A stretch of 64,000 nt of DNA from Corallococcus praedator (GTDB taxonomy: Bacteria; Myxococcota; Myxococcia; Myxococcales; Myxococcaceae): assembly GCF_003612125.1 (NCBI RefSeq), contig NZ_RAWI01000005.1:1-64000 (forward strand), in the 5' to 3' direction. The notes below the pieces were generated by a model. That model was given only the letters and a program-made list of their open reading frames with translations, was not told where the DNA came from and ran no database searches. The position numbers were made by a program, and so were the translations under genes. Positions 31,155 through 64,000 of this stretch are shown here, piece by piece. Positions within the stretch are counted from its first letter, which is position 1. Every line of letters begins with the position of its first letter.

Positions 31155-31721
31155 TCAGAAGCCGAGTCGGGCCAGCGAAGCAGCGAGGGCCGGGTGCATG
31201 GCGCGCCACTCGGGCATCGAGCGCACCGTGTCGAGGAAGCGCCAGACGGCGGCGAGCCGCTGTGCATCCGTGGTGCTGGCCGGCTCCGAGAGGTAGAGGC
31301 CGCGCACGGGCTCCAACTGGCTGCCGCTCACGAGGCCCGGCCACTGGCAGTGCGGCGCGTCCCCGAAGGAGCCGCCCCAGGCGAGGCCCGCGCGCCGCGT
31401 CTCCTCGCCCAGGATGGCGTAGGCCGGCCCATCCCAACGCGGTTGCAGGCCGGGACGCGTCACGTCGGCATCGCGGCAGAAGTCATTGGCCAGGCCGTAG
31501 TTGTGCGCGGAGAGGCCTTCCGGGGCCGCGCGTCCGCCCTCCCCTCGCAGGTAGCGCGCGTGGAGCGAGCCCTGCTCCGCGAAGGTGGCGAAGCCGCGCG
31601 TGGCGACGTAGTCCGCGCCTCGCGTGCGGCAGCGGGCGATGACTTCGCCCATCACCGCCTGGAATGGCGGGTAGAGGGGCTTCAAGTCGATGCGGGAGAA
31701 CAGGTCCGAGTTGGGAATCAT
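31155..31721 (-). CDS. Endolysin, M15-family L-alanyl-D-glutamate peptidase
   Basis: The 188-residue enzyme shows the M15 zinc motifs: GLSAHNYGLANDF (S-x-H-x-x-G-x-A-x-D) and the later GDAPHCQWPG histidine. It resembles the T5 and A500 type phage endolysins that cut peptide crosslinks in peptidoglycan. It has no signal peptide and so needs a holin, which the next gene could supply. A copy of the phage GCCCCCATT motif lies nine bases before its start. Confidence 0.85.
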   Translation of the reverse strand: MIPNSDLFSRIDLKPLYPPFQAVMGEVIARCRTRGADYVATRGFATFAEQGSLHARYLRGEGGRAAPEGLSAHNYGLANDFCRDADVTRPGLQPRWDGPAYAILGEETRRAGLAWGGSFGDAPHCQWPGLVSGSQLEPVRGLYLSEPASTTDAQRLAAVWRFLDTVRSMPEWRAMHPALAASLARLGF

Positions 31722-31730
31722 CCCCCACTG

Positions 31731-31739
31731 AATGGGGGC
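31731..31739 (-). promoter_or_regulatory. Phage boundary motif GCCCCCATT, copy 1 (endolysin)
   Basis: On the minus strand GCCCCCATT lies nine bases before the endolysin ATG. CCCCCA can pair with TGGGGG just before the start, which would mask the ribosome site. Confidence 0.7.
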
Positions 31740-31763
31740 GGGTTTTGATGGGTGGCGTGCGCG

Positions 31764-34979: not shown

Positions 34980-34989
34980 GGGGGGGGCC

Positions 34990-38733: not shown

Positions 38734-39131
38734 TGGGAGGGGAAGCGCTGCGCGAGGAAGTCCTTCAGGACGGCTGCCACACGGCGGCGAGCGCTGCCCC
38801 GGGCACGACGGAAGGACTTGCGGAGGAAGTGCGGCGGCGGATTGAAGAGCTGTGCGCCCCAGTGCCAACCCTCGTGAATGGGGCCTGCGGACGGGTGCGC
38901 GTAGCCTGCTGTCCACGTCGTAGAGAGGCGCGGGCTCAGGTTGTGGAGGGGGCCACTCAGGAAGGCGCTGCCGCGCAGGTGGCCCTCCTCCACCGGAACG
39001 AGGAAGAGGGAGTAGTCCAGGGCGAGGCGGGCGACGTCCCGACATGGCGCATCCAGCGCGCGCAGCACTTCAAGGGGCGAGCGTCGCAGGCGCTCCATCC
39101 TCAGGACGTCGGTTTTGACTCGGATGGGCAT
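38730..39131 (-). CDS. HK97 gp10-like head-tail / tail completion protein
   Basis: The 133-residue basic protein has VPVEEGHLRGSAF and AGPIHEGWHWGAQLF, the pattern of HK97 gp10-type proteins. It is coupled to the tail tube gene by ATGA. A copy of the phage motif lies 11 bases upstream of its start, immediately after the ParA cargo, so it begins a new transcription unit. Confidence 0.7.
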   Translation of the reverse strand: MPIRVKTDVLRMERLRRSPLEVLRALDAPCRDVARLALDYSLFLVPVEEGHLRGSAFLSGPLHNLSPRLSTTWTAGYAHPSAGPIHEGWHWGAQLFNPPPHFLRKSFRRARGSARRRVAAVLKDFLAQRFPSQ

Positions 39132-39142
39132 CTACCCCATTC

Positions 39143-39151
39143 AATGGGGGC
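39143..39151 (-). promoter_or_regulatory. Phage boundary motif GCCCCCATT, copy 2 (gp10-like)
   Basis: It lies 11 bases before the gp10-like ATG. CCCCATT/AATGGGG can fold back over the ribosome site. It marks the edge between GC-rich late genes and the AT-richer ParA cargo. Confidence 0.7.
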
Positions 39152-39361
39152 AGGGGTTGCGAGCGGCGACAAACTGGACGAGAATTTTTGCAAATATCCC
39201 CAGGCAAACGGCGCCACAATCAGCCATTTTCCAGCATGCACGAGATTAAGCACGAAGCCTGAAGTGCATGCATCTATCTCAACGAATCACCGCAAGGATT
39301 TTCCGACCCCACCACCAACTGCATCCCGAACTTCACACAAGCATCTCAAAGTGAGCCAAAC

Positions 39362-40447
39362 ATGAGCACAACGCCAGCAGCACCTCCGGTCAAAACCAAA
39401 GTCATCACGATCTTCAACAACAAGGGGGGCGTAGGAAAAACAATCACATCCTGGAATCTCGGGGAACAAATCGCACAAACCGGGAAAAGCGTTCTCCTTA
39501 TCGATTTCGACCCCCAGTGCAATCTCTCCATTGCTGTTCTTGGTGAAACGCGATTCTTCAGCCTCCTCCCGCAAAACACAACATCCTATGGATCATGCAT
39601 CAGATCCTATCTCCAGCACTTCCTCCAAAGCACAGGCAAGGAAGAGCTCTTCCTTCATAAAGGGGGAACACAGAGCGCCCCATCCCTACGCATCGTAGCG
39701 GGAGACTTCTGGCTAAACGTGTACGCCGAATCACTAACCGTAGGCAACGATCTCCTGTCCGGCACAGGCATCACAAGATTTGCCATCCTCAAGAGAATAA
39801 TCGAAAAGGCAAATCATGAGATGGGCAAACCATTCGACTTCGTCCTGCTCGATCTGCCACCATCGTTCAACTCACTCGTTCGCGCCGCGCTATATACGTC
39901 GGACTACTTTCTTGTCCCGTGCACCTCCGACAACTTCAGCGCCTACTGCATCGGCCTAATCGGACAAATGCTGCCCGCATTCATGGCCGACTGGAAGCAA
40001 GGAATGAATCGATTCAAAATCTCAAACCCTTCAATCACAGAATTCGATTCAATTGGTCAACCTAAATTTGCTGGCTGGGTATTTAACGGATTTGATACTC
40101 GCGCCGGGAACGTCGTAAGAGCCGACCAAGTGCACAAAGACAGGCTAACTCAGGCCATTCGCGATGACCTTGTCGCCAAACTAAACAACGCAGCCCCAAC
40201 ACTGGGATACAATCCAATCCCCAGCAACCTTCCTGGTGACTTCTGCGTTGGAACAACAGAAGACATGAACGTTCTTGTCCAAAACAGCATTTGGCAAAGC
40301 GTACCCGTCGGCCGCCTGGACAAGGTTCAGCAACTAATGGACCTGCAAAACAAACGGGGATGGGCACCACAGCAGCTCGATCAGATCAAGAAAATTCGAG
40401 GCGCCTACGACAAAATGGCAAAAAATGTGATAAAGGTCTGCATCTAA
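39362..40447 (+). CDS. Orphan ParA-like ATPase (cargo)
   Basis: The 361-residue protein has the deviant Walker A of ParA/MinD proteins (NNKGGVGKTITSWNLGEQ), LLIDFDPQCNLS (A') and FVLLDLPPSFNSLVRAAL (Walker B). No ParB or parS is near. It is on the plus strand inside minus-strand tail genes and is clearly AT-richer than they are, so it is an inserted accessory gene. A role in prophage partition is unlikely at this place; a moron or defence function is inferred only from context. Confidence 0.85.
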   Translation: MSTTPAAPPVKTKVITIFNNKGGVGKTITSWNLGEQIAQTGKSVLLIDFDPQCNLSIAVLGETRFFSLLPQNTTSYGSCIRSYLQHFLQSTGKEELFLHKGGTQSAPSLRIVAGDFWLNVYAESLTVGNDLLSGTGITRFAILKRIIEKANHEMGKPFDFVLLDLPPSFNSLVRAALYTSDYFLVPCTSDNFSAYCIGLIGQMLPAFMADWKQGMNRFKISNPSITEFDSIGQPKFAGWVFNGFDTRAGNVVRADQVHKDRLTQAIRDDLVAKLNNAAPTLGYNPIPSNLPGDFCVGTTEDMNVLVQNSIWQSVPVGRLDKVQQLMDLQNKRGWAPQQLDQIKKIRGAYDKMAKNVIKVCI

Positions 40448-42324: not shown

Positions 42325-43548
42325 TCAGTTGCTGCCCCAGCTCAAGCCCGTCACCACCACGCCGCTCTGCCGGTGGCGCATGGCCAGGTCGTGCTTGGTG
42401 ATGGCGCGCAGCACCGTCTGGTCCGTGGAGATGCCGGACACCACCTGGCCGCCACGCGTGAAGGCGCCGTTGGGGAAGACGTCGATTTCCAGCGCCATGG
42501 ACTCGCCGATGAGCACCTCGGCCATGTCCACGAGGTACAGCTCCGAGCGGCTGTTGCCCGTGCCGAGCGTCTCCGGAATCTGGTTCGTGACGAAGAAGGG
42601 CACGTTGCGCAGCGTTCCGCGCTCCACCATCTCCTTCTCCAGCGAGTTGTAGCCCTCGCCACCAGGTCCCACCGCGTCCAGCAGCGCCGTCTCCGCGCCC
42701 GGAGCCATCAGCCACACGGGGTGCACCATGGGCACGTTGGCCTTCTTCAGCTTCCGCTTCGCCTTGTTCAGCTCCTTCTTCATCTCCAGCAGCGTCGGCG
42801 AGCCCGCCGTGGCCACCGTCTCCGCGTAGACGTGGGCCGTGTCCACCTGGTTGCGGATGCCGCGGGGCTCCAGTTGCGTGCCGCTACCCCGGAGGAAGGC
42901 CGCGTCCTCCCGCAGCGCCATGACGTTGAGCAAATCGTTACGGATGAACTCCTCGGCGTTGATGGAGGCGTTGCGGATGAGGTCGTTCGGCACCGCCGTC
43001 AGTGCCGTGAGCTTCTTCTCCGAGAGGCTCACCGAGTCTGTGCCCGGCTCCGACTCCTGGATGGTGCTCGTCTCCCCGCCGTAGAAGGCGGTGCCCGTGC
43101 TGGACTGCCGGTCGAAGGTGAGCGAGGCGCCAATGGGAATCACGCGCGCGCCGGCCTGCCGCACCACTGCCTTGTTGCGCAGCAGCTCGATGAACTCGGC
43201 GGCAAACTGGGGATGCACCGTCGAGCCTAGGCCGGAGTAGTTGCCCTGGGACAGCGACTTGCTCACCACCTCGTCGCCCCACCCCTTCAGCACGTCCACC
43301 ACGTTGCGCCCATCCATGCGCGCGACGGCTTTCGCCTTCACGAAGCGGATGAGGTTGAGGCCCGTGCCCTCCGTCATGTGCTTGCCGGTAATCGGCGCGC
43401 GGCGGGGCTCCTCGGGCGTGGCGTCGGCCGCCTTCGCGCTCAGCAGGGCTGCGTAGCTTTCGCGGTGGCCCTTGGACTGCTCCACCAGTTGCGCGGCCAC
43501 CAGCGGCCCCAGCGACTTCGCCATCTCCTGCATCTCTTCGGGGGTCAT
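42325..43548 (-). CDS. Major capsid protein, HK97 family
   Basis: The 407-residue protein has an N-terminal helical scaffold-like delta domain (EEMQEMAKSLGPLVAAQLVEQ), then the HK97 fold: RVIPIGASLTFDRQSSTGTAFYGGE, KKLTALTAVPNDLIRNASINAEEFIRNDL, LRGSGTQLEPRGI and LYLVDMAEVLIGESMALEI. The prohead protease presumably removes the N-terminal part. The start overlaps the protease stop (ATGA) and has GGAGA upstream. Confidence 0.88.
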   Translation of the reverse strand: MTPEEMQEMAKSLGPLVAAQLVEQSKGHRESYAALLSAKAADATPEEPRRAPITGKHMTEGTGLNLIRFVKAKAVARMDGRNVVDVLKGWGDEVVSKSLSQGNYSGLGSTVHPQFAAEFIELLRNKAVVRQAGARVIPIGASLTFDRQSSTGTAFYGGETSTIQESEPGTDSVSLSEKKLTALTAVPNDLIRNASINAEEFIRNDLLNVMALREDAAFLRGSGTQLEPRGIRNQVDTAHVYAETVATAGSPTLLEMKKELNKAKRKLKKANVPMVHPVWLMAPGAETALLDAVGPGGEGYNSLEKEMVERGTLRNVPFFVTNQIPETLGTGNSRSELYLVDMAEVLIGESMALEIDVFPNGAFTRGGQVVSGISTDQTVLRAITKHDLAMRHRQSGVVVTGLSWGSN

Positions 43549-44231
43549 GCGTTCTCCTGGAGGTGCTGCAACAGGGCCCGCGCCGTGTGCGCGGCGAGGG
43601 CTTGGGTGTCGGACTCGGACAGAGTGGGAGGCGCTGCGGGCGGCGCGGCCTTGCGCTTCTTCCGCGCCTTGCGGCCCACGGCCTTCACCACGGCGTCAGT
43701 GATGTCGCGGATGAGGGCGGCGCGCTCGTCGGAGTGCTTTTTCAGCCGCACCGCGCGCTGGTTGCCGGGAATCGTGACGACGGAGATCTCCAGCAGTTCC
43801 TGCTCGTCGCAGTCGAAGCCGCCGCGCTCGTTCTCGTGGTAGCGCAGCATCCGGTAGCGCACGCTCACCGCGTTGAGGATGCCCTTCTCCACCTTGCGCT
43901 CGACGCGCCGGGCGAACTCGTCGTCCTGGTCGAACTCGATATCCACCAGGAGGGCATCGCCCTGGACATAGGCGCGGCCCTTACCGATTGGCAGAATGTC
44001 CGTGCGACCCGCACCGAACAGCCCTCCGGAACCGTCGTCGTGCATGTAGAGGACGACGGGGTTCGCGGCATAGGAATCAAGCTGCCAACCCTGGACGGAC
44101 AGGCGGTCGTTGTAGCGGTCAAAATCGGCGTCGTTTGCCCGAAAGGTGAAGACCTTCGGGCCCCCATCATCGGGGGCAGGCGCGTGCTTCTTAGCGACGA
44201 GGCGGCGGGTCCTCTGAAGAGACTTAGGCAT
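43545..44231 (-). CDS. Prohead maturation protease (HK97 family, S78)
   Basis: The 228-residue protein shows DRYNDRLSVQGWQLDSYAANPVVLYMHD (catalytic His), GILNAVSVRYRML (catalytic Ser) and ELLEISVVTIPGNQRAVRL, all characteristic of HK97 gp4-type proteases. It processes the capsid before packaging. Its start is preceded by GAAGAGGTGA directly downstream of a phage motif copy. It is separated from portal by 3 kb of cargo, an unusual interruption of the portal-protease-capsid order. Confidence 0.88.
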   Translation of the reverse strand: MPKSLQRTRRLVAKKHAPAPDDGGPKVFTFRANDADFDRYNDRLSVQGWQLDSYAANPVVLYMHDDGSGGLFGAGRTDILPIGKGRAYVQGDALLVDIEFDQDDEFARRVERKVEKGILNAVSVRYRMLRYHENERGGFDCDEQELLEISVVTIPGNQRAVRLKKHSDERAALIRDITDAVVKAVGRKARKKRKAAPPAAPPTLSESDTQALAAHTARALLQHLQENA

Positions 44232-44241
44232 TCACCTCTTC

Positions 44242-44250
44242 AATGGGGGC
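44242..44250 (-). promoter_or_regulatory. Phage boundary motif GCCCCCATT, copy 3 (prohead protease)
   Basis: It lies 10 bases before the protease ATG with the ribosome site GAAGAGG between. The AT-richer cargo starts immediately on its far side. Confidence 0.72.
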
Positions 44251-44362
44251 ACTTCCCGCGAGCTGCTCAAACGAACTAGCGTCCCGGCCAGCAAGCGAGA
44301 TGAGCAGCCCTAACGATTCGTAGCAATCAGAGCATTCAAGCTCACAGAAGAGGACCAACTTC

Positions 44363-45538
44363 ATGGCCACGGGCACAACGATCCACGATCAGTTCATAGA
44401 GCTTATCTGCACAGAAGATCCGCAGGAGCGTGGCTACCAATTCGAGAAGTTCCTTCTCGCCCTGTTTACTTGGTCTGGCCTACACCCACGTGCTGGCTTC
44501 CGAAATATCGGCGAGCAAATAGACGGCAGCTTCACTCTAAACAACAACACATATCTCGTAGAGGCAAAGCTAAAGTCCAAGCCAGCCGACTTTGCAGACC
44601 TATCGGCCATAGCCACCAAGGTAGGGGGGAAAGCTGAGTGGACACGGGGCCTACTAATCAGCATCAGCGGATTCTCTGACAAAGGCCTGAGAACGTTCTC
44701 AAACGGCCGCCCAACGAATATCCTCTGCATGGACTTCAACGACATCGACGCCGTACTTGACGGAAATGTAGGACTCAAAGAACTCATCGAAAGAAAAGCG
44801 CGATGCGCCGCCGAATCAAACACCTCCTTTTCCCCAGCTAAGGAGCTATTTCCAGAGAGATTCAAAGACGAAAAATCCACCAAGCCCCGCCCGAAATCAC
44901 CGGGATTCAGACCAGCGGGGGATGCTCTTCAAGAAATCCTAGACCGAGACCCGCATAAGGAATTCCACATTTGGTGGGATCGTGTCACCGAACCAGAAGT
45001 TCACAACTTCACGTCCACACTCGATAGCGCATCCGAGCCACTCCTCCGAGAGTACATTTCAAACACCCCCCACCTTCTCATTGAGCATCTTCGCGGAGGG
45101 CACGGGCGCTACGTCATTCCGGGGGAGAAATTCATCAACTCACCACCAGTCGACTATCTAGTTGCCGAAAAATCCAGCATCGGGTTCGAATGGGAGATTG
45201 TCGAATTGGGCAGTCCGCTCGCCACGAGCATCGATCCTCAGGGATTCCCAACACAGCAGCTCGGCATCTCGTACGACCGAATCAAAAACTGGAGAGCATG
45301 GCTAAACGAGAATATCGACATTGCTCGTCGCCCAATCGCCCACGGCGGACTTGGGCTTTCCGATATTGAAATCGATACACCCGCACTAATCCTGTTGGGC
45401 CGCCGCGACGCGGCAGCCACCAGTGCAGCCCCTCGACTCAAGTCACTAATCCGAGAGTCCGTCAAAGTACACACATACGACTGGCTCATCGACAACCTAT
45501 TGAGCAAGGCAAGAGGCCTATCCCGGAGACACGACTAG
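44363..45538 (+). CDS. Two-domain nuclease: Mrr-like REase plus Shedu-like DUF4263 domain (candidate defence gene)
   Basis: The 391-residue protein has an N-terminal Mrr-like domain (RGYQFEKFLLALFTWSGLHP, IGEQIDGSFTLNN, YLVEAKLKSKPADF) with the D-x(n)-E-x-K nuclease core and TRGLLISISGFS. The C-terminal half, VDYLVAEKSSIGFEWEIVEL then QLGISYDRIKNWRAWLNEN, resembles the DUF4263 nuclease domain of the Shedu anti-phage system. It is AT-richer than the phage genes, opposite in strand, and inserted between portal and protease. A single-gene defence function is the best inference. Confidence 0.7.
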   Translation: MATGTTIHDQFIELICTEDPQERGYQFEKFLLALFTWSGLHPRAGFRNIGEQIDGSFTLNNNTYLVEAKLKSKPADFADLSAIATKVGGKAEWTRGLLISISGFSDKGLRTFSNGRPTNILCMDFNDIDAVLDGNVGLKELIERKARCAAESNTSFSPAKELFPERFKDEKSTKPRPKSPGFRPAGDALQEILDRDPHKEFHIWWDRVTEPEVHNFTSTLDSASEPLLREYISNTPHLLIEHLRGGHGRYVIPGEKFINSPPVDYLVAEKSSIGFEWEIVELGSPLATSIDPQGFPTQQLGISYDRIKNWRAWLNENIDIARRPIAHGGLGLSDIEIDTPALILLGRRDAAATSAAPRLKSLIRESVKVHTYDWLIDNLLSKARGLSRRHD

Positions 45539-45632
45539 CGCACACCAAATAAAAACCACATCAAGCCTCTACCCTGCCTCGCTTCCACTTCTTCGAGACA
45601 GCCATAAACAATACTAAACACCTACCTCCTCA

Positions 45633-45641
45633 ATAGGGACG
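45633..45641 (-). promoter_or_regulatory. Degenerate boundary motif (GTCCCTATT)
   Basis: On the minus strand GTCCCTATT is followed by GAGGAGG, resembling the nine perfect copies (GCCCCCATT then a purine-rich site). It separates the two cargo cassettes but has no intact gene after it. Confidence 0.4.
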
Positions 45642-45703
45642 AATTCCACACATGACAAACCAACATGAATCGGCAGCAACGCCCACGAATGACTGAAGCC
45701 AGT

Positions 45704-46021
45704 CTATCTTTCACGCTCTACACTGAGCCTCTTCGCGCGGCTTGACTCGAAATCTATCCAGCGATCAAAAAAGAGCATCCCAGCCACCCAAAGTGCCGCC
45801 ACGCCAACCGCTTCACCCCAAGGGAGGCCAGCGCGGCCACTTGAGGCTGACCATTGGAGATCGCAGAAAATGATGACAAAAGGCAGGAATCCAAAGAACC
45901 ATAAAATCCCAAGGTTCAGCGGCACCAGGACTCTCCAACCGTGCGACTCGTACCAGTCGAGGTTGCCGCCCAGCCATGTCCAGAACGCCCAGAGAGCGAA
46001 TATGAATGCTATCACATTCAT
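45704..46021 (-). CDS. Small membrane protein, partner of the EVE-nuclease gene
   Basis: The 105-residue protein has about three hydrophobic segments (NVIAFIFALWAFWTWLGG, VLVPLNLGILWFFGFLPFVIIF, AVGVAALWVAGMLFF) and a basic tail. It overlaps the upstream nuclease gene by ATGA, so both should be made together. Membrane partners are common in abortive defence pairs; the function here is unknown. Confidence 0.65.
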   Translation of the reverse strand: MNVIAFIFALWAFWTWLGGNLDWYESHGWRVLVPLNLGILWFFGFLPFVIIFCDLQWSASSGRAGLPWGEAVGVAALWVAGMLFFDRWIDFESSRAKRLSVERER

Positions 46022-47094
46022 ATTCCAAGCCCCACAACTCCGATGGCGGACAATCGCTTCGCAGTGAGCGGACCTCCTCGGATGACCTTCCCCTCACACC
46101 AAATCAGCAACATCCCCAAAGTCTCTTCGACGTACGACACAATCTCATTGCCAGGATTTTCTCCAAGCACTATCCCAAGGGACGCGCTACTGGGCCCTCT
46201 GAAGTGACGGTATTCAAGCAACTGCCCAACAGCTTCACGCACAGCAAAAAGTGAATCCCGCCCGCCAAGTGTCTTGACCTCAAAAATTACTTGAACGGGG
46301 CTATGAACAACAAGATCCAAAGGATGCGGCATGGTGACGTGAGCACCTGCGGATTGCAGTGCACTACCCACTACTGCCACTAACTTCTCGTGACCTCGCG
46401 TACGCCTCTGCAAACCGCCGCGAATTACGGCCTCGTAATCAGCATCATTTTTCAGTCGAAACTGACCGAGTGCTCGTGGAAATCTGGCCATCAGCGCCCG
46501 GGGAGCGCCAACGACTGGGCTCAAAGCAGCCAGCCTCTCTTGAGTTTCATCAAGAGAGGCTGTTAGCGAAGATAACTCAGGCCAGTGGTCAACCCACTCG
46601 GCAGGCATCTTAAAAAGGTAGCCTTGCCCTGCCCTCAACGTATCCGCATATCGTGATATTGGAGCGGCGATGAAATCATGCCTCTTCTTCATGCCGTCTA
46701 GCCACTGAAGTATCCAGTCTCGATTTTGGAGCTCGGCTAACCGTGCGAGCGAGAGCGGCTCAGCGGCAGGTGTATATCGATGAAGGGGCAGCCACCACCC
46801 AGGGCGCTCCGCTCCCGCATGTTTTGCGCGTCCATAGGTGCCATGGGGCGTCCAATCAATAGGGCGATCCTCAAGTGGGCCGCCAGCGACTGATGCACCG
46901 ACGAACGCCTTAGCTACCGTCGAGTAATGAAAAACGACGTCGCCCGTCCAGATGGCCTGGATCAAAGAGTACGACCAATAGTCTCGCCCTCCTTCATCCC
47001 GAGAAGGGCACTTCAAGTCCGCACCAATATCGTCGCGACCAGTGACCTCGCACCAGAAGCATTCCTGAGATTCGGATTCCCACCAGTAGGCCAT
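46018..47094 (-). CDS. EVE-like domain fused to PD-(D/E)XK nuclease (candidate modification-dependent restriction enzyme)
   Basis: The 358-residue protein begins MAYWWESESQECFWCEV and continues WTGDVVFHYSTVAKAFVGAS, the pattern of EVE/PUA-like domains that read modified bases. The C-terminal part has HPLDLVVHSPVQVIFEVKTL and AVGQLLEYRHF, a D-(x)n-E-V-K core with the trailing Q-x-x-x-Y helix of restriction-type nucleases. The middle is helical. Together these suggest cleavage of DNA carrying modified bases, as on some invading phages. It is AT-richer than its surroundings and coupled to a membrane protein gene. Confidence 0.7.
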   Translation of the reverse strand: MAYWWESESQECFWCEVTGRDDIGADLKCPSRDEGGRDYWSYSLIQAIWTGDVVFHYSTVAKAFVGASVAGGPLEDRPIDWTPHGTYGRAKHAGAERPGWWLPLHRYTPAAEPLSLARLAELQNRDWILQWLDGMKKRHDFIAAPISRYADTLRAGQGYLFKMPAEWVDHWPELSSLTASLDETQERLAALSPVVGAPRALMARFPRALGQFRLKNDADYEAVIRGGLQRRTRGHEKLVAVVGSALQSAGAHVTMPHPLDLVVHSPVQVIFEVKTLGGRDSLFAVREAVGQLLEYRHFRGPSSASLGIVLGENPGNEIVSYVEETLGMLLIWCEGKVIRGGPLTAKRLSAIGVVGLGI

Positions 47095-47292
47095 ATTAAG
47101 ATTCTATGTCCCCAGGCTGACTGGCCAGGGCCTTGGTCGTTCGGTTGCGCCCATTCTCCTGATGTGCGCCGCTCAGGACAAGTCGTAGCCCTGCGGAGGC
47201 CCCATCCGGACCATGAAGGGAGCAATCGATGAGCGCTTCAACAGTCCTCTCTGCAACCTGACACTCGCCTTTGCGACTCTCAGATCCTCTTG

Positions 47293-47301
47293 AAGAGGGA
47301 C
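47293..47301 (-). promoter_or_regulatory. Degenerate boundary motif (GTCCCTCTT) overlapping a palindrome
   Basis: Minus-strand GTCCCTCTT followed by CAAGAGG; CCTCTTGAAGAGG at 47286-47298 is a perfect palindrome. It lies five bases past the portal stop at the edge of the cargo. It could also be a terminator or a recombination scar. Confidence 0.35.
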
Positions 47302-47305
47302 GTCC

Positions 47306-48601
47306 CTACTCCGACTTGGGATCCTGATCGTTTTCCAGGGCCTGTCCCGGCATTGGCAGCGGATAGCCTTGCCGGTTCGGGTCCGGCTTGAAGCCCGCTA
47401 GCTCCCGCCACTCCGTGTAGCTGAAGGCCTCCGGCATGGTGCCCATGACGCGAAGCTGGTGCTCGCGGTCCGCAGGCACTGGGCTGTCGTAGTCGAGAAT
47501 GACCTCCGCGTCGCCGAACAGTGGCATCAGTCGCATCTGGTACTCGGTGCGGAGGAACTCCATGCGGGGGAACGTCGCCTGCTCGGCGAGGTTCTCCCGC
47601 GCCGCAAAGGCCGTCGCCTTGTTCGAGCTGGAGATGTCACCCACGATTTCGGGGGGCACGCGGTACGTCATCCGCACGAAGCCCATGAGGAACTTCCGCA
47701 GCTCCACCATCTGCATGTCGCGGAAGCTTGTATCCAGGCGGGCGAACGTCACCCGCCCACTGGTCAGCAGCAGCTTCCCCGCCTTGTCCGGCCCTTGGTG
47801 CTCGCGGGCCAGAGACTCCTTGAAGGCCTTCGCCCCCGCGCTGTTCGCGTCCGTCAGCCCCTCAATGGACGCGATGGCGGGCGGCAGCATGTTGTTCCAG
47901 AAGCTCGCTCGGAGAAACCGCGCCACGAACTCATCCGTGTCCAGCTCGTCGCCCAGCGCGAAGGCGGGTCCCACACCGCGCCCGAGCGGATCCTCCGGGT
48001 CGAGATTGCGCAGGTGCAGAACATCCGCCGCTGGAACCTGCCGCGACACACCGCCCACGGTGACAGTGAAGGTCCGCTGCTCACGCGGGACGTCCATCGC
48101 GGGCAGCCGCGTGACGACGTTGGGAGGCACCGGCCAGAAGCCCACGGGGAAGCCCGCCACGCGCTCCAGCACCAGGAAGGACTCTCCGACGAGGTCCAGG
48201 TACACCTGCACCAGCTTCGTCACGGAGCGGCCCGTCAGGTAGTCATTAGGGTCTGCGAGCATCCGTAGAACGGGATGGTCCGGCACTTCCTGGACTTCGC
48301 CCGCGTCGAGCATGGACTTCAGCCGCATGGCGCGGACCTCGCGCGTCGCGCTGCGCAGGGCGTAGTCCTTCACTGGCTGCCCATCCCGCGACACGCGGCG
48401 GTACACGCGCCAGTTCACTGCGGCCACCGAGTCCGCAACGGTATCCACCACCGTGCGCAGCCACGGCATCTCGCGGTACGCGGCGAGGAGCTGGGTGGTG
48501 CCACGACGCGGCGGCGCCTGCTGCCAGCGCGCCAGCTCAAGCCCTGTCCCCTGTCGCGGCTGGCGCACCACCGCCGACTTCATCCGGTTCCACAGTCCCA
48601 T
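47306..48601 (-). CDS. Phage portal protein, HK97 family
   Basis: The ~431-residue protein shows MPWLRTVVDTVADSVAAVNW, AVNWRVYRRVSRDGQPV, SFLVLERVAGFPVGFWPVPP and FGDAEVILDYDSP, typical of HK97-type portals that form the dodecameric DNA gate. ATG 48601 has GAGGGTGG upstream; a longer in-frame TTG start at 48622 would overlap terminase. It lies 11 bases downstream of TerL. Confidence 0.9.
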   Translation of the reverse strand: MGLWNRMKSAVVRQPRQGTGLELARWQQAPPRRGTTQLLAAYREMPWLRTVVDTVADSVAAVNWRVYRRVSRDGQPVKDYALRSATREVRAMRLKSMLDAGEVQEVPDHPVLRMLADPNDYLTGRSVTKLVQVYLDLVGESFLVLERVAGFPVGFWPVPPNVVTRLPAMDVPREQRTFTVTVGGVSRQVPAADVLHLRNLDPEDPLGRGVGPAFALGDELDTDEFVARFLRASFWNNMLPPAIASIEGLTDANSAGAKAFKESLAREHQGPDKAGKLLLTSGRVTFARLDTSFRDMQMVELRKFLMGFVRMTYRVPPEIVGDISSSNKATAFAARENLAEQATFPRMEFLRTEYQMRLMPLFGDAEVILDYDSPVPADREHQLRVMGTMPEAFSYTEWRELAGFKPDPNRQGYPLPMPGQALENDQDPKSE

Positions 48602-48612
48602 CCCGTCCACCC

Positions 48613-50052
48613 TCACAAGCAAAAGAACGAATCAGCGAACACCAGCTCGTGCGCGCCCCAGAGCAGGGCATCGACACGGTCATCGCGGCGGCCGTTGATG
48701 CCGCTGAACTTGGCAAGCTGGGCCTCCAGCTTCGGGAAGGTGCCCACCAGTTCAATTCGGCCCGTCTCCGCCAGGGCGCTTACCGGTTCGGCGCGCTTCG
48801 ACTTCGCCTCCCGGGCGCGCACCGGCTTCACGTTGACCTGGACGCCCATCTCCGAGGCCACGGTCTGGATGGTCGTCTCCACCATCTCCCCGCCCGAGTT
48901 CACCTCGGCCACAAGGGCGTCACAGCCGAAGGCCAGGTACTCGCGGATCGCTGCGGCGGCCCACTCACGCGGCGAGCCCCGGAGGCTCGCATCCTTGAGC
49001 ACGGAGATGCGCTTGAGGGGCGCACCATCCATCCCGGCAAGCGGACTGCTCCTCACGCCCTGGACGACGATGCCCGTCTCGTCCGAGCCCGTCTCGCTGG
49101 TGGGCGCCGGGTCCACGGACACGATGCGCCGGTCCAGGCCCCGCGCGTACTCGTGGGCATCCGCCTCCACCCTGCCCCACTTCGCCGAGCCGAAGATGGC
49201 ACCGGGAACATCCATGAGCAGCCGGCCCAGCACCTCCTGCTGACCCCAGCGCGTGTGCATGAGGGCGCGCATGGTGGCGACGGCACTGGGCGCCAGGTTG
49301 GCGCGGTTGGCCAGGGAAGAGCCCGTGCGCAGCACCACGCCGGGCCGCAGCGCCTTCGATTCCGCGTCCGCGAAGAGCAGCTCCTCCAGCTTCTTCAACG
49401 GCCGGGGCGTGCCGGTGAGCAGCAGTTGGGGAGGACGCGCCGCGGTGCCGATGCGCAGCACCATGGGGAGCTGGTCCAGCGCCGCCATTTCGTGCTTCCA
49501 GGAAGCGGGCTCGTCGCCCCAGGCCCAGCCGCAGTTGGGGCCACGCAGCCGGTCCGGCTTATCCGCCGAGTAGCAGATGGCGTAGACGCCATTGGGCCAC
49601 GTCACCCGGCGCTTGCTGGGCTCGTACACCGGTAGGAACCAGGGCGGCGACAGGGCCAGGATGCCGCTGGAGCCGCGAATCATCGTGTCGCGCACGTCGG
49701 CCGCCGTGGGGCCGATGAGGGCGCCAATCGTCTTCGCCTCGCGGGCCTTCTGAATCACCCAGCGGGCCCCGCTCCAAGTCTTCCCGAAGCCCCGCCCCGC
49801 CATGATGAAGCAGGTGGAGAAGGAAGCCGGGGGCACCTGCTCGCGCCGGGCCCAGAAGTCCAGGTCGTGGACGAGCGTTTCCACCTCGGGATGGGTGAGC
49901 TTCCCGAAGAGGCGCGCGAGGCCCTGGCGCGTGCCCGCGTGCTTCACCAGGTGCTCGGCGGGGGACTCGTCCGGGGCCAACGTCTCCACCATTCCGGAGA
50001 AGCGCAGGCGCTCGCGGTGGGCGACTTCCCAGGAAGGGGCGTCACGGGGCAT
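48613..50052 (-). CDS. Terminase large subunit
   Basis: The 479-residue ATPase-nuclease has Walker A at residues ~84-92 (MAGRGFGKTWSG), a Walker B-like GWAWGDEPASWKHEM and the coupling segment LLTGTPRPLKKLEELL. The C-terminal RNase H-like nuclease contains RIVSVDPAPTSETGSDETG, FGCDALVAEVNSGGEMV and RRDDRVDALLWGAHEL (acidic triad). ATG 50052 overlaps the TerS end by 11 bases. Confidence 0.93.
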   Translation of the reverse strand: MPRDAPSWEVAHRERLRFSGMVETLAPDESPAEHLVKHAGTRQGLARLFGKLTHPEVETLVHDLDFWARREQVPPASFSTCFIMAGRGFGKTWSGARWVIQKAREAKTIGALIGPTAADVRDTMIRGSSGILALSPPWFLPVYEPSKRRVTWPNGVYAICYSADKPDRLRGPNCGWAWGDEPASWKHEMAALDQLPMVLRIGTAARPPQLLLTGTPRPLKKLEELLFADAESKALRPGVVLRTGSSLANRANLAPSAVATMRALMHTRWGQQEVLGRLLMDVPGAIFGSAKWGRVEADAHEYARGLDRRIVSVDPAPTSETGSDETGIVVQGVRSSPLAGMDGAPLKRISVLKDASLRGSPREWAAAAIREYLAFGCDALVAEVNSGGEMVETTIQTVASEMGVQVNVKPVRAREAKSKRAEPVSALAETGRIELVGTFPKLEAQLAKFSGINGRRDDRVDALLWGAHELVFADSFFCL

Positions 50053-50497
50053 CGTCGCTCCCTGCCTCGCTGGCATCCGCCTTGGGCTCCGGAGCATCCG
50101 GTAGGAAGCGCCCCAGCCGCTCCATGAGCAGCTCGCGCAGGGCGACCTCGTCGGCGGCCTTGTCCTCGGGCGCCTTCTCCTCGACGTTGTCGCGCCGGCC
50201 GTACAGCTCCGGGAAGCGACGGGAGAGCAGCCACTGGACGTGCTTCGGGTTGTGCGCGGCAGCCGCCATCAGCATGTCCGTGGCGGACTGCATGAACCTC
50301 GCTTCCGCCGCGCTCACCGCGAGGTGGAAGTCGCGGTAAACGCCGCGTTCCTCCCCCGCACCACGATGAAACCAGCGCGAAAGCGTCTGTTCGTTGATGC
50401 CAACGAGGCCCGCGACGGCTCTGCGGAAGAGGCCGCGCTCCAGGTGGCCGCAGATAAGTGCCTGAACTTCGGGAGTCAGCTTGGACGGGCGAGCCAT
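50042..50497 (-). CDS. Terminase small subunit
   Basis: The 151-residue protein has an N-terminal HTH (ICGHLERGLFRRAVAGLVGINEQTLSRWF) followed by helices (AEARFMQSATDMLM), RFPELYGRRDNVE and an acidic tail. This is the usual TerS arrangement that recognises pac/cos and recruits TerL. It is the first late gene and begins with a motif copy 11 bases upstream. Confidence 0.85.
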   Translation of the reverse strand: MARPSKLTPEVQALICGHLERGLFRRAVAGLVGINEQTLSRWFHRGAGEERGVYRDFHLAVSAAEARFMQSATDMLMAAAAHNPKHVQWLLSRRFPELYGRRDNVEEKAPEDKAADEVALRELLMERLGRFLPDAPEPKADASEAGSDDAP

Positions 50498-50508
50498 TTC
50501 CCCTGTGA

Positions 50509-50517
50509 AATGGGGGC
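50509..50517 (-). promoter_or_regulatory. Phage boundary motif GCCCCCATT, copy 4 (TerS)
   Basis: It lies 11 bases before the TerS ATG with AGGGG between; CCCC can pair with GGGG. GAAACC precedes it, as in copy 8. Confidence 0.72.
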
Positions 50518-50782
50518 GGTTTCGCTGAAGAATTCGGCGCTACGCCCGACAAAACTCAGGGCGGCGCGGGCCGGGGCCGATTTTTCTCAAGATTTTTCGA
50601 GCGTGGGGGCCCGCCGAGCAAGGCTGAAAAGGGACGACCGTCCCAAATCTGGACCGGGGGGGGGGCATCACACCCACTCCCGCGCACATATAGAGTGTGA
50701 CAGCTACATGCGGCTTGGGGAGACGCCCACAGGGCTAAACCAAACCTTCCCACAGGCTGAAATCAACCTGTAGCATCCGAGC

Positions 50783-51115
50783 ATGAGCATTCCCGTTCCT
50801 GTCTTGGCAGCCTTCGGCTTCTACCTAACCCGTAAATTGCTGAAGACAAGCTCTCGCTCAAGGAAGAAGCGCACTCCTGGTGTGTACATGCAGATTGGGC
50901 GCAATGGTCGCGTCCGCTATGGGGAGTCGGAAAACGTCGAGCATCGCGCTCCTTTATCCGCACGAGAGAACATCGACTGCTTGGGACCTGATCCTGTCAT
51001 CAAACTCATCCGCCGCGAACCAAACTTGGAAAAGCGCCGCATGCTCGAAACTCAGCTAATCACCGCGCATCGGGCCCGCGCACCAAATCAAGTTTGCAAT
51101 CGCATTAATCGGTGA
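50783..51115 (+). CDS. Small GIY-YIG-like nuclease protein (cargo)
   Basis: The 110-residue protein has a hydrophobic start (VPVLAAFGFYLTRKLL) and then TPGVYMQIGRNGRVRYGESENV, ending RRMLETQLITAHRA with N at the end. The G-V-Y ... R-Y-G spacing, the arginine of VEHR and the Glu of MLETQLI fit a compact GIY-YIG fold. It is AT-richer than the flanks and on the strand opposite to them. It could be a toxin, a defence nuclease or a homing-type enzyme. Confidence 0.55.
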   Translation: MSIPVPVLAAFGFYLTRKLLKTSSRSRKKRTPGVYMQIGRNGRVRYGESENVEHRAPLSARENIDCLGPDPVIKLIRREPNLEKRRMLETQLITAHRARAPNQVCNRINR

Positions 51116-52362: not shown

Positions 52363-52459
52363 GGTTTCCTCCATTCGCCAGGACCTGGGGAGTAACATCC
52401 CCTTCTGACATGGGGCTCGCGGCCTGTAGCGCCGGGGCAGCGGCCCACCTACCCCTGCA

Positions 52460-52468
52460 AATGGGGGC
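52460..52468 (-). promoter_or_regulatory. Phage boundary motif GCCCCCATT, copy 5 (sigma operon)
   Basis: It faces the small membrane protein and sigma genes, 98 bases before ATG 52362. The long distance favours a transcriptional over a purely translational role. GCAGGGG follows. Confidence 0.68.
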
Positions 52469-52551
52469 GGACTTCCGGCGTGGCATTTCCGCGACGGGCG
52501 CCAAGGCCGGAGGGCGGCGAGCCCTTCACACACATCACTCTCGTTCTCTAT

Positions 52552-55056: not shown

Positions 55057-55250
55057 CTCTCCGGCTTCTTGAAGCTGTTGAACTGGACCACGCACGATTG
55101 AACTGCAAACCTTCCCAAGAGACAGGCGCCCATACGAGGCTGCATTAGAAGTAACTATGCCGCACCGCCCGCTGGGATAGATAGAGGCATGGCAGGATCC
55201 TAGAGCATGTGGGACATTCGATACAGCGGTGGCAACCAGCGAGGCTTAGA

Positions 55251-55790: not shown

Positions 55791-55793
55791 GCC

Positions 55794-56204: not shown

Positions 56205-56345
56205 ACCAAGCGGGCAGGCTCCGGCGCTGCTCCCGCATTGGCATAGCCTAAGCTGTGATGGCCTGATTGTTGGCCCCTTTGGCAGCGCGGCTCTCCGTCC
56301 CCGAGATTTTCACGTCGCTTGCGATCGGAGCCACGGCCGGAAGTT

Positions 56346-56354
56346 GCCCCCATT
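56346..56354 (+). promoter_or_regulatory. Phage boundary motif GCCCCCATT, copy 7 (RecB-like)
   Basis: It lies nine bases before GTG 56364. CCCAT/ATGGG can form a small hairpin. It marks the right edge of the AT-rich nuclease cassette. Confidence 0.72.
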
Positions 56355-56363
56355 AAATGGGTG

Positions 56364-57719
56364 GTGAGTCACTCCGCCGAAGAAGTCACACGCCACGCTG
56401 TTGAAAGCGGCGTCCTCCGCAGACTGTCTGTCTCCCAGCTGCGGAAGTTCGCCCTCTGCGAGCGTGCGTGGTTCTTCGCCAAGGTCCTCCGGCTGCCTGA
56501 GCGGCCCCTCAAGGCCCGAGACCTTGGCACCGCAGTCCATGCCCAGCTTGAGTACTACCTGCGCACGGGTGAGGACGTGCTGGGTGCCCTCGCGGCGGCC
56601 GGCAAGCACCTGCTCCCCGCCCCAGGTCCTGACCTCCTCGTAGAGGAGCACTTCGGCCAGCCCTCCCCTCTCTTCGCTAATGGCATTCCGCTCACCGGCT
56701 ACATCGACCTCGTCAACCCGCGACGCCTCGCCGAGGGCGTGCTGCGCGTCACGGACCACAAGACGACGAAGTCTATCGCCAGCTACGCCGCCACGCCCGA
56801 GCAGCTCACCTCTGCCGCCCATGACGCCGGCATCCAGATGGTGGGCTACGGCTACTGGGCCGTCCTCGCCGCAGAGCGCTTCCCGGGGCTGAAGCGGCTG
56901 GAGCTGGAGCACCTCTACTTCCAGACCCACGGCGCGCGGCTCGCGCGCTCCGTCGTCGCCACCGTTAGCGTCGAGCACGTCCGCGACGAGTGGCACACGC
57001 ACGTCGAGCCGATGGCGCGCCGCATGCGCGACGTCGCGCGGGCCACCTCCCCCAGCCAGGTCAAACCCACCTGGAGCGCCTGCCAGAAGTACGGCGGGTG
57101 CTCCTTCCAGGCGCAGTGCCTCAACTCGCAGTCACAAGGAAGCAAGCCCATGGCCCTGATGGACCGCATCCTCAAGCCCCAGACTCCGCCCACGCCGCCC
57201 GCCGCATCCGCGCCCGCCCAGGCCGCCACGGAGCTGGAGTTGGCCGCGGTGCTGCCTCCGGACGCCCCGAAGAGTGATCCGGCGCTCGCGTCCATCCCAG
57301 CGCCCGAGCAGGCCGCCTTGCCGGCCAGCGACGAAGCCCCGCGCCGCAAGCGCCGCACGAAGGCGGAGATGGAGGCCGCCCGCACCTCCGACCCCAGCCG
57401 TCCCGCCGAGGGCAGCCTGTCCCTGTTCGTGGACTGCGTGCCCAACTGCCCTGCCGAGCCGCTGGCTGGCTACGTCGGCCGCATGGTGGCAAAGATTGAG
57501 CAGGAGTGCGGCGTGGTGGATATCCGCGTCGCTCCCAACGACTCGCCCCTGGCCTACGGGAAGTGGAAGGGCGTCCTGGCCGCCACCATCCGCGCCGAGC
57601 CTCCCGAGCCCGGCACCTACGCCGCCCTGGGCGTGGCCGGCAGCGAGCTGATGCAGGTGGCCGTGGAAGCCCTGGAGCCGCTCTGTGGCACGGGGCACTT
57701 CGTCCGGGGCGTCCGGTAG
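56364..57719 (+). CDS. RecB/Cas4-like PD-(D/E)XK exonuclease (DUF2800-like)
   Basis: The ~451-residue protein begins with the Cas4/RecB pattern SVSQLRKFALCERAWFFAKVL and DLGTAVHAQLEYYL, with the catalytic GYIDLVNPRRLAEGVLRVTDHKTTK (D ... D-x-K) and a Cys cluster (WSACQKYGGCSFQAQC) that may hold an Fe-S centre. The C-terminal 150 residues are a Pro/Ala-rich linker and a small domain. It is part of the phage replication/recombination set. The GTG at 56364 fits the motif spacing; GTG 56361 is equally possible. Confidence 0.8.
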   Translation: MSHSAEEVTRHAVESGVLRRLSVSQLRKFALCERAWFFAKVLRLPERPLKARDLGTAVHAQLEYYLRTGEDVLGALAAAGKHLLPAPGPDLLVEEHFGQPSPLFANGIPLTGYIDLVNPRRLAEGVLRVTDHKTTKSIASYAATPEQLTSAAHDAGIQMVGYGYWAVLAAERFPGLKRLELEHLYFQTHGARLARSVVATVSVEHVRDEWHTHVEPMARRMRDVARATSPSQVKPTWSACQKYGGCSFQAQCLNSQSQGSKPMALMDRILKPQTPPTPPAASAPAQAATELELAAVLPPDAPKSDPALASIPAPEQAALPASDEAPRRKRRTKAEMEAARTSDPSRPAEGSLSLFVDCVPNCPAEPLAGYVGRMVAKIEQECGVVDIRVAPNDSPLAYGKWKGVLAATIRAEPPEPGTYAALGVAGSELMQVAVEALEPLCGTGHFVRGVR

Positions 57720-59555: not shown

Positions 59556-60641
59556 TCACCTTTGTCCACGCCACTTGTCGAACCCAGCAATCAAATTCCT
59601 CACACACGCCGATGCCTTTTCCTTTGTGTCACATTCGCTTGCCAGAACCCGCTCAATTAGCGCCCCCTCCATCTTAAAAATCCGGGTACGACGATCTGCC
59701 TCTGCCGGACTCTCCACATGAACTGTATCCCCATCCACTTCAACAACCATCATCGCCCCATCCTTGAGCACGATAAAGTCCGGCTCAATGCGCTGGTACG
59801 CGCCAGCCCCCCCTCGAAGAAAAACAGGCAGAGGCGCAAACGCCACGCCAGCAGCCTTGAGCGCTCGATAAACATGTATCTCCACCCCCGATCGAAAAAG
59901 CAGCCCATCTTCCTGTCTCGACGGAAGATTATCAGAGCGAACCCTCCCTTGATTATTAATCCCTTCCCCTCTCAGCCATCGCTTTGCATCAGTTCGCCAG
60001 TCATCCAAACCGGAAACGGCCACATTAATTGAAACATCGCGAATCCAATCATTAAAGCCATCCTGCCCAAGCTCACGCGTGACCTTCAAAATATTCGCGC
60101 AACAAGAATCAGACATCTCCTGATCCATCTGCTTATAGTACTTAAGGGGGAGTCGAATCCTAATCAACCACTGGCAATAATCACCGTCAGACTCCATCAA
60201 CTCAAATCCCAAATCACCCGCAGTCAGAACTGCAACCTCTCTCGCAAGGCCATCGTACTTTAGAAGCTGAACGACTTTCGAGAAATACTCATCCGCCTTC
60301 GCCGCAAACCCCGGGCCAGGAGGGGGGCGTCTTGCCTCTTGGCCGGGATTCTCTAGGTAAGAAAGAAGGCCATCAAACGAATGACGCACATGTACTCGTC
60401 GGTCAGAAAAGTTTGCAAAACCCCTCCCAATAAAGTCTCCGAACTCCGACAAGGTCCTGCAAGAGCGAACATACTCCGGCACGAATCTCGCGATGGCTGG
60501 TTCGCCGATCAACAGCTTGCGCAAACGCCGATATTCACTGTCGCTCTCAGGCTGGGAACACTCATTTGAACGCTCTACCAGCAACTCCTTGAATTGCTCC
60601 GCGTCCTCAAGCCTGACAACGTTCTTCGATTGCTCTGACAT
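59556..60641 (-). CDS. Candidate defence nuclease with DUF559-like C-terminal domain (cargo)
   Basis: The ~361-residue protein has a helical N-terminal part and a C-terminal domain reading RSGVEIHVYRALKAAGVAF, YQRIEPDFIVL, MMVVEVDGDTVHVES and KMEGALIERVLASEC. E-x(n)-P-D-F ... E-V-D-G matches the DUF559/Vsr-like branch of PD-(D/E)XK nucleases. It is AT-rich, opposite to the early genes and convergent with the helicase gene with no gap. The start at 60641 follows GAGGTGG; 60676 is an alternative. Confidence 0.6.
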   Translation of the reverse strand: MSEQSKNVVRLEDAEQFKELLVERSNECSQPESDSEYRRLRKLLIGEPAIARFVPEYVRSCRTLSEFGDFIGRGFANFSDRRVHVRHSFDGLLSYLENPGQEARRPPPGPGFAAKADEYFSKVVQLLKYDGLAREVAVLTAGDLGFELMESDGDYCQWLIRIRLPLKYYKQMDQEMSDSCCANILKVTRELGQDGFNDWIRDVSINVAVSGLDDWRTDAKRWLRGEGINNQGRVRSDNLPSRQEDGLLFRSGVEIHVYRALKAAGVAFAPLPVFLRGGAGAYQRIEPDFIVLKDGAMMVVEVDGDTVHVESPAEADRRTRIFKMEGALIERVLASECDTKEKASACVRNLIAGFDKWRGQR

Positions 60642-60738
60642 CGTCGCCACCTCGGCGGCATTAGTTTCGCCCGACATTACCACACAGGCTCCAGCTTGGT
60701 CGCCTCCTGACCTGGGCGCCACGCATCCTCTAGAAACC

Positions 60739-60747
60739 GCCCCCATT
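60739..60747 (+). promoter_or_regulatory. Phage boundary motif GCCCCCATT, copy 8 (SSB-like/polymerase)
   Basis: It lies 56 bases before ATG 60804 and is preceded by GAAACC as in copy 4. It sits at the right edge of the DUF559-like cargo, inside that gene's own 5' region. Confidence 0.68.
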
Positions 60748-60803
60748 AAAACTGGTGAGGACGTCTCTTGACGTCTCATCACCCGAAAGGGGGAGCAACG
60801 GGC

Positions 60804-63433: not shown

Positions 63434-63449
63434 ATCACCCGCAGTGGCT

Positions 63450-63458
63450 GCCCCCATT
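63450..63458 (+). promoter_or_regulatory. Phage boundary motif GCCCCCATT, copy 9 (RuvC-like)
   Basis: It lies eight bases before GTG 63467, with AGGAAG as ribosome site between. Confidence 0.72.
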
Positions 63459-63466
63459 GCAGGAAG

Positions 63467-64000
63467 GTGAACTCCGAACGAGCACCTACCCGCGATGAGG
63501 GTGCCACGAAGCTTGTCGCCATCGACCCGGGGCTGCGTCACTGCGGCATTGCCCTCTTCGACGTCGCCTCCGGATCGCTCCTCTGCGCTGGGCTGCCGAA
63601 GAACTCCGGACCCGCCCATGGAGCGTTGTCGCTCGCATCGTGGGCCTCCATGGCTGGCGCGGTCCATAAGTGGCTACGTCGACGCGCAGACGAAGAGCCC
63701 TTCCAACTCGTCATCGAGCTGCCCCGCGTCTACGCAGCCGCACACCAGCGGGGCGACCAAAACGACCTCATCCAGCTTGCCGGTGTCGTCGGCATGCTGG
63801 GAGGCGCCCTGGCGCCTGTTGCGAATCGCCGAAGCGTCTACCCGCGCGACTGGAAGGGCACCCTCAACGCGGACGCGTTCATCGAGCGCATCAAACAGCG
63901 CCTCGACGCCGCCGAGCACCTGCGCGTCGAACTGCCGGCCACGCACAACCTCCACCACAACGTCTGGGACGCCATCGGCATCGGGCTGCATGCCCTCGGT
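63467..64000 (+). CDS. RuvC-like Holliday junction resolvase, cut by window edge
   Basis: The frame is open to the right edge (178 residues visible). It starts MNSERAPTRDEGATKLVAIDPGLRHCG and has VAIDPGLRHCGIALFD (first catalytic Asp), LVIELPRVYA (Glu) and a late HNVWDAIGIGLHAL (Asp), the RNase H-like layout of RuvC and phage crossover resolvases. GTG 63467 is chosen from the AGGAAG site. It completes the early replication/recombination set. Confidence 0.78.
   Translation, partial: MNSERAPTRDEGATKLVAIDPGLRHCGIALFDVASGSLLCAGLPKNSGPAHGALSLASWASMAGAVHKWLRRRADEEPFQLVIELPRVYAAAHQRGDQNDLIQLAGVVGMLGGALAPVANRRSVYPRDWKGTLNADAFIERIKQRLDAAEHLRVELPATHNLHHNVWDAIGIGLHALG

What the first reader, a model, noticed from the sequence alone, without database searches (positions are those of the whole stretch)
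44242..47301. Two defence-like cassettes delimited by three same-orientation motif copies
Between portal and prohead protease, normally adjacent, lie a Shedu-like nuclease (plus strand) and a membrane protein + EVE-nuclease pair (minus strand). The perfect motif at 44242 and degenerate copies at 45633 (GTCCCTATT) and 47293 (GTCCCTCTT), all in the same orientation, bracket each cassette. This looks like a small array of exchangeable cargo joined at short direct repeats, similar in logic to lambdoid boundary sequences.
Basis: partly seen in the sequence, partly recalled or inferred. Interest (0 to 1): 0.8.

Follow-up and report, generated by a model that had tools for sequence, protein, structure and literature searches.

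The report
Prophage defence-gene bays at operon heads
A family of Myxococcus prophages carries swappable, probably anti-virus genes at several fixed points, each just upstream of a short repeated "start" element; the element very likely switches on the next phage operon and marks where cargo is tolerated rather than being the cutting-and-joining site, and the bays can be mined for new defence genes.

Summary
The cargo observation is right and larger than reported; the mechanism is only partly right. In 25 distinct close relatives (portal 83-94% identical) the portal-protease gap always holds low-GC cargo (0.66-3.1 kb), about 19 different contents, including Pycsar, Mrr, HNH and Schlafen-like genes; the window has a Shedu-like gene. 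In a sister clade (portal 55-58%) most gaps are about 35 bp and hold only the element. The upstream joint is always at the same portal codon (PGQ), the downstream joint always at the motif before the protease. That motif is a ~40-bp start-associated element, found 9-11 times per prophage, 14-22 nt upstream of operon-first genes, its core more conserved than coding sequence. With a matrix trained on other phages, 44250- and the middle copy 45640- are genuine; the claimed left copy 47301- is chance. Genome-wide, homology breaks cluster at these elements (1361 edges; 62 expected), at five or more bays, but several elements, such as the terminase one, have no cargo. Best explanation: operon-head expression element marking permissive cargo bays, with cargo swapped by recombination in flanking genes. 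Direct recombination at the element is a weaker rival, kept alive by the orphan middle copy.

The parts
47306..48622 (-). Portal gene, upstream border of the bay; conserved only up to the codon ending at 47342 (LPMPGQ), after which nearly every phage has its own tail
   Evidence: Pfam PF04860; in 25 of 25 relatives homology ends after PGQ
46018..47094 (-).
   Evidence: No family match; one distant homologue (31-33%) over most of the length in the family; AF2 pLDDT 37
45704..46021 (-). Cargo 1, 105-aa hydrophobic protein overlapping the 358-aa ORF by 4 bp
   Evidence: ORF list; no family above cut-off
45617..45656 (-). Orphan start-associated element between the two cassettes (core GTCCCTATT at 45640-45632), with no backbone gene behind it
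   Evidence: PWM score 24.3, 0 hits in 2 Mb background; no protease homology beyond it; resembles clade A type
44363..45538 (+). Cargo 2, 391-aa Shedu-like protein; N-terminal EQIDG...VEAK stretch suggests a second PD-(D/E)XK-like domain (inference)
   Evidence: PADLOC SduA E 2.8e-8, Pfam SduA_C E 0.001 below cut-off; alignment
44227..44266 (-). Start-associated element of the protease operon = downstream joint of the bay (core GCCCCCATT 44250-44242)
   Evidence: PWM 41.7, rank 1; homology edge at 44249-44254 in the clade A comparisons listed; core column identity 0.97
43545..44231 (-). Prohead protease (Peptidase_S78), downstream border
47293..47301 (-).
   Evidence: PWM -13.9, rank 205, 7-18 expected by chance
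39128..39167 (-). Element at bay 1, before a 133-aa gene (weak match to tail completion/Neck1)
   Evidence: PWM 26.7; 496 of 505 pairs break here
39362..40447 (+). Cargo in bay 1 of the window: ParA-like ATPase, GC 0.50, opposite strand
   Evidence: Pfam AAA_31 E 9e-28; other phages carry other genes here
60723..60762 (+). Element at bay 6
   Evidence: PWM 28.9; 90 of 90 pairs break here
59556..60738 (-). Cargo in bay 6 of the window (ORF 59556-60782)
   Evidence: no family; other phages carry other genes here
56330..56369 (+). Element at bay 4 (variable ORFs 55209-56204 upstream)
   Evidence: PWM 37.3; break in G028 at 56346; 48 of 200 pairs break within the interval
63434..63473 (+). Element at bay 5, empty in the window (gene stop 63433, core 63450); G028 has about 940 bp here
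52445..52484 (-). Element heading the leftward operon at the divergent region
   Evidence: PWM 15.7; break in L011
52678..52717 (+). Element at the head of the rightward 782-aa gene
   Evidence: PWM 28.3
50494..50533 (-). Element before the small terminase operon; not a cargo joint
   Evidence: PWM 20.8; homology continues upstream in 392 of 473 pairs; TerS
31716..31755 (-). Element before the 188-aa gene 31155-31721
   Evidence: PWM 10.6

Best explanation
The portal-protease gap is one of at least five cargo bays in a family of Myxococcus prophages. Each phage operon starts with a roughly 40-bp start-associated element (RCCA-n6-8-GAA-n3 plus clade core G(C/T)CCCCAT(T/A), then Shine-Dalgarno and start codon) that is needed to express that operon, probably by binding a phage-specific factor. 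The stretch from the stop codon of one operon to the element of the next can be replaced without harm, so low-GC, mostly opposite-strand, defence-like genes accumulate there. New cargo enters by rare illegitimate recombination and is then exchanged between related phages by homologous recombination in the conserved flanking genes; selection for the upstream gene and for the element makes the joints look exact. Shown: the bays, joint positions, cargo diversity, fixed spacing and strong conservation of the element. Inferred: its role in expression, the trans-acting factor, the route of exchange and the defensive function of the cargo.
For: 25 of 25 close relatives carry cargo at the same two joints, about 19 contents, many defence-like. 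In a sister clade most gaps are 34-37 bp and contain only the element. The core lies 14-22 nt before a start codon in 97 of the 104 elements with an assignable start, in both transcription directions; 16 more had no ORF of at least 70 aa. Its columns are more conserved (0.88-1.00) than the coding sequence just downstream, while identity upstream is at the random level in bays. Elements also head operons without cargo, such as terminase, as expected of an expression signal. Three clades use three core variants consistently at their sites. The exact clade B element is in 10 of 96 family genomes, mostly in these prophages; reversed-pattern control 0. Two prophages about 91-92% identical over most of 36 kb differ by cargo at three element sites, no target duplication seen. 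Cargo families recur mostly in the same bay.
Against: The orphan element at 45640 heads no backbone gene and is not predicted by a pure expression role. One cargo family (DUF4062) occurs in two different bays. In clade A only the core is conserved at the joint, so the joint lies inside the element. No hairpin or other expression mechanism could be demonstrated. Gene starts without an element also show some homology edges (0.81 per start).
Confidence: 0.66

Rival explanations
1. The element is itself a recombination boundary: cargo plus its downstream element moves as a cassette by short-homology recombination between element copies, so cassettes can be swapped or stacked.
For: Homology edges are about 22-fold enriched at elements over random placement, in the proper sense 15:1. 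A genuine element separates the two cassettes of the window. One cargo family in two bays. Tandem elements spaced about 75 bp in G028 and 80 bp in G077.
Against: No element at the upstream joint in any of 25 phages. Only 1 of 25 gaps has an internal element. Elements without cargo at terminase and other sites. Nearly all recurrent cargo families stay in one bay.
Confidence: 0.22
2. A dedicated enzyme (integrase, transposase or homing nuclease) inserts cargo next to the element.
For: Upstream and downstream joints are very precise in 25 phages; some cargo encodes HNH nucleases.
Against: No integrase or transposase family among the cargo proteins scanned with Pfam; no target-site duplication or terminal repeats seen at the joints inspected; upstream joints differ between bays.
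Confidence: 0.05
3. Ordinary phage mosaicism: joints merely follow gene borders and the motif coincidence is trivial because any gene start would do.
For: Gene starts without an element also show some edges (0.81 per start).
Against: 7.56 edges per element, about nine times more than at other gene starts, and random relocation never exceeds 145 against 1361.
Confidence: 0.07

Closest known systems
Start-associated sequences (SAS/ESAS) of cluster K mycobacteriophages (PMC3203893, PMC12699233)
   Same: Short asymmetric repeat, 11-19 copies per genome, immediately upstream of start codons, gene-oriented, almost absent from the host genome, subcluster-specific variants of the associated repeat; role proposed in gene expression, not verified
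   Different: Unrelated sequence (GGGATAGGAGCCC there); there located 3-7 bp from the start and in the non-structural half, here 14-22 nt from the start and in structural operons too; no link to cargo bays was found in the passages read
[quoted passage not shown]
   Same: Small loci of about 1-5 kb with high turnover of diverse defence genes between two conserved phage genes
   Different: There one hotspot next to cos per element; here at least five bays per phage, each directly before an operon-head element, including one inside the head-gene cluster between portal and protease
Lambdoid boundary sequences (from memory, not tested)
   Same: Short conserved sequence at mosaic joints
   Different: Here the sequence is start-associated, present only at the downstream joint, and also present where there is no mosaic joint
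PeSL mobile regulatory cassettes of T4-type phages (from memory; only the title phrase was searched)
   Same: Regulatory element repeated through variable regions
   Different: Here the element belongs to the conserved downstream gene rather than demonstrably travelling with the cargo

Membership tests
Phage anti-phage hotspot (Rousset type) | Small locus between two conserved phage genes with high turnover | tested here: met
   25 of 25 relatives, about 19 contents
Phage anti-phage hotspot (Rousset type) | Contents include diverse defence genes | tested here: met
   Pycsar cyclase and TIR effector (E 6e-103, 7e-113), Mrr, HNH, Schlafen-like, DAC, Shedu-like, metallophosphatase; roughly half of the contents still have no recognised family and no formal enrichment test was made
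Phage anti-phage hotspot (Rousset type) | Cargo shown to protect against phages | not testable with these tools
   needs plaque assays
Start-associated sequence (as a kind of element) | Repeat at fixed short distance upstream of start codons, gene-oriented | tested here: met
   14-22 nt in 97 of 104 elements with an assignable start, both strands
Start-associated sequence (cluster K family itself) | Consensus GGGATAGGAGCCC | tested here: not met
   pooled consensus here is GCCACTCGCGGAAAGTGTCCCCATTGAAG
Lambdoid-type boundary sequence | Conserved sequence at both joints of the exchanged module | tested here: not met
   only at the downstream joint
Lambdoid-type boundary sequence | Crossovers occur in the sequence | not testable with these tools
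   needs crosses
Shedu (SduA) | SduA nuclease domain match above curated cut-off | tested here: not met
   Pfam 19.7 bits against cut-off 27; PADLOC SduA E 2.8e-8: Shedu-like, not filed as Shedu
EVE-domain nuclease | EVE domain match or fold | tested here: inconclusive
   no family match, AF2 pLDDT 37

The most novel reading that the evidence does not exclude
The start-associated element doubles as a docking site: cargo arrives with its own downstream element by short-homology recombination between element copies, so that a prophage becomes a multi-bay chassis in which defence cassettes are exchanged and stacked (as in the window's cargo 1 + element + Shedu-like cargo + element arrangement), with a clade-specific trans-acting factor keeping all copies alike.
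Probability: 0.2. Interest if true: 0.85.

Novelty: new variant of a known kind. Interest (0 to 1): 0.62.

Why it matters
How defence genes turn over so fast at phage hotspots is an open question (stated in PMC9122126). Here is a prophage family with at least five such bays per genome, exact joints, empty and filled states in close relatives, and a marker element that makes bays findable by pattern. About half of the contents of the portal-protease bay have no recognised family, so the bays are a ready list of candidate defence systems from myxobacteria. The element itself, with three clade-specific versions kept alike at their sites, points to an unidentified phage regulator.

Tried and rejected
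Hairpin hypothesis for the element (core pairing with the Shine-Dalgarno): mean folding energy equals that of permuted partners in clades A and B, rejected. Left motif copy 47301: chance. Idea that the middle element is a duplicated protease start: no protease homology beyond the element. Idea that the middle element came from clade B because of its GTCCC core: likelihood ratio places it with clade A. The two near-identical ORFs in bays 1 and 4 of G028 look like antisense ORFs of a repeated element, not cargo; set aside. Structure of the 358-aa protein: unusable model. No close relative of the portal among 50,697 phage records, so no characterised phage to lean on.

Full report
Check of the observation. 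The window lies in a Myxococcus-type genome (10.5 Mb, 1491 contigs; named relatives are mostly Myxococcus species) and carries a prophage. Portal (47306-48622, -) and prohead protease (43545-44231, -) are separated by 3074 bp of low-GC DNA holding a weakly Shedu-like ORF on the + strand and a 358-aa ORF plus a small hydrophobic ORF on the - strand. The perfect motif GCCCCCATT occurs 10 times in the window against 0.76 expected, nearly always oriented with, and just before, a gene start.

The gap in relatives. Scans of IMG/VR, genome contigs and 96 genomes of the family gave 25 distinct prophages (the window's included) with portals 83% or more identical. All 25 have cargo of 658-3074 bp, GC 0.47-0.56, in this gap. 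The sister clade (portal 55-58%) has gaps of 34-37 bp where the protease start could be placed (about 50 bp where the hit began inside the gene), essentially the element alone. On the upstream side homology ends in 25 of 25 phages directly after the portal codons PGQ; the portal tail beyond is different in nearly every phage. On the downstream side homology starts at the motif before the protease. The cargoes fall into about 19 different contents: Pycsar cyclase plus TIR effector (PADLOC E 6e-103 and 7e-113), Mrr restriction endonuclease, HNH nucleases, an HNH effector-like protein, Schlafen/AlbA_2, metallophosphoesterase, DACNG/DACNH/DAC, DUF4062, and others without a family. Most cargo genes run against the phage operon (48 of 71 over all bays). 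This is a defence-gene hotspot in the sense of PMC9122126.

The motif is a start-associated element. In the second clade of prophages (B) nearly every copy resembles RCCAnTCGCGGAAAGYGTCCCCATWRA; in the window's clade (A) the core is GCCCCCATT; in the sister clade (C) it is CGCACNCATTTA, usually directly after the upstream gene's stop codon. Each well-covered clade A or B prophage has 9-11 copies. Among 120 distinct elements, 97 lie 14-22 nt before the start codon of an ORF of at least 70 aa, 7 lie 27-31 nt before one, and 16 have none. At bays the columns jump from random identity to about 0.6-0.9 at -20 in clade B and to 0.9-1.0 at the core in both clades, above the coding sequence that follows. 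An exact search for the clade B element in 96 family genomes found 50 copies in 10 genomes, mostly on the contigs of these prophages, with none for the reversed pattern.

A 40-position matrix trained only on 63 elements of other phages ranks 44250- first in the window and 45640- sixth (24.3 bits; no hit as good in 2 Mb of simulated sequence); 47301- is at background (-13.9; 7-18 expected in 3 kb). So the window is: portal, cargo 1 (358-aa ORF and hydrophobic ORF), orphan element, cargo 2 (Shedu-like), element, protease. No other phage of the 25 has an internal element in this gap (two weak hits of 4-5 bits in the Pycsar cargo are at background). The orphan has no protease-like sequence behind it and is of clade A type.

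Genome-wide test. Pairwise comparison of 27 prophage sequences gave 6182 homology-block edges; 1361 fall within -45 to +20 of an element core with the conserved side downstream, against 90 in the opposite sense; random relocation gives 62 on average and 145 at most; gene starts without an element have 0.81 edges each against 7.56 per element. Pairs are not independent, so these are strong indications, not exact probabilities. The breaks concentrate at particular sites: protease (562 of 584 pairs), the 39131 gene (496 of 505), 60739 (90 of 90), with smaller shares at others; at the terminase element homology runs on upstream in 392 of 473 pairs. Thus elements head operons in general and only some of those heads are cargo bays. 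Two prophages about 91-92% identical over most of 36 kb (82% in the last stretch; G069, G071b) share their Pycsar cargo at the protease bay but differ at bay 6, at bay 1 and at a third site that is empty in one (26 bp) and filled in the other (342 bp), each time with the element at the joint, and no target duplication is apparent. Recurrent cargo families stay in one bay with one clear exception, DUF4062 in the protease bay of two phages and in bay 6 of another.

Interpretation. The simplest account is that the element is an expression signal for each operon and that the interval from the previous stop codon to the element is free to vary. Selection then makes both joints look exact, elements without cargo are expected, and no motif is needed upstream. 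Exchange would go through the conserved flanking genes, which fits cargo recurring in the same bay. The consistent use of one core variant in each clade suggests a phage-specific factor. A dedicated insertion enzyme is unlikely (no recombinase families in the cargo scanned, no duplications at the joints inspected). The defensive role of the cargo rests on homology only, and the function of the element is not demonstrated here; for cluster K mycobacteriophages, the closest precedent for such elements, the function is also unverified.

Known or new. Prophage defence hotspots and start-associated sequences are both known separately. I found no report of this Myxococcus family, of a defence bay between portal and protease, or of a start-associated element marking several bays (open-access literature only). 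I therefore rate it a new variant of a known kind.

Noticed in passing
G028 (L077, about 4.2-4.3 kb into it; stitched positions 24304- and 24231-) and G077 (oriented positions 13919-, 13841-, 13758-): Two and three start-associated elements in tandem, about 73-83 bp apart, before the same kind of site; in G028 the two copies are alike beyond the element, as if the element with its first codons had been duplicated.
   Followed up: partly
window 50783-51115 (+): Small 110-aa ORF reminiscent of GIY-YIG proteins inserted upstream of the terminase element (edge about 145 bp from it); absent from G028, L009, L011 and L013. No Pfam match.
   Followed up: partly
window 34374-37665 against G028: In G028 the homologous blocks on either side are adjacent (9 bp), so the long tape-measure-like gene region appears deleted; that prophage may be defective.
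   Followed up: no
L013 7300-8052: A 750-bp insertion between large terminase and portal relative to the window, another possible cargo point without an element.
   Followed up: no
L003 11624-13327 and L018 10654-13351: The prohead protease is split by about 1.7 kb (L003) and 2.7 kb (L018) of inserted DNA near residue 95: a possible intron, intein or insertion sequence.
   Followed up: no
L017 11317-12537: Clade B protease followed by a major capsid protein 86% identical to the window's (others in that clade about 32%): capsid swap just downstream of the protease.
   Followed up: no
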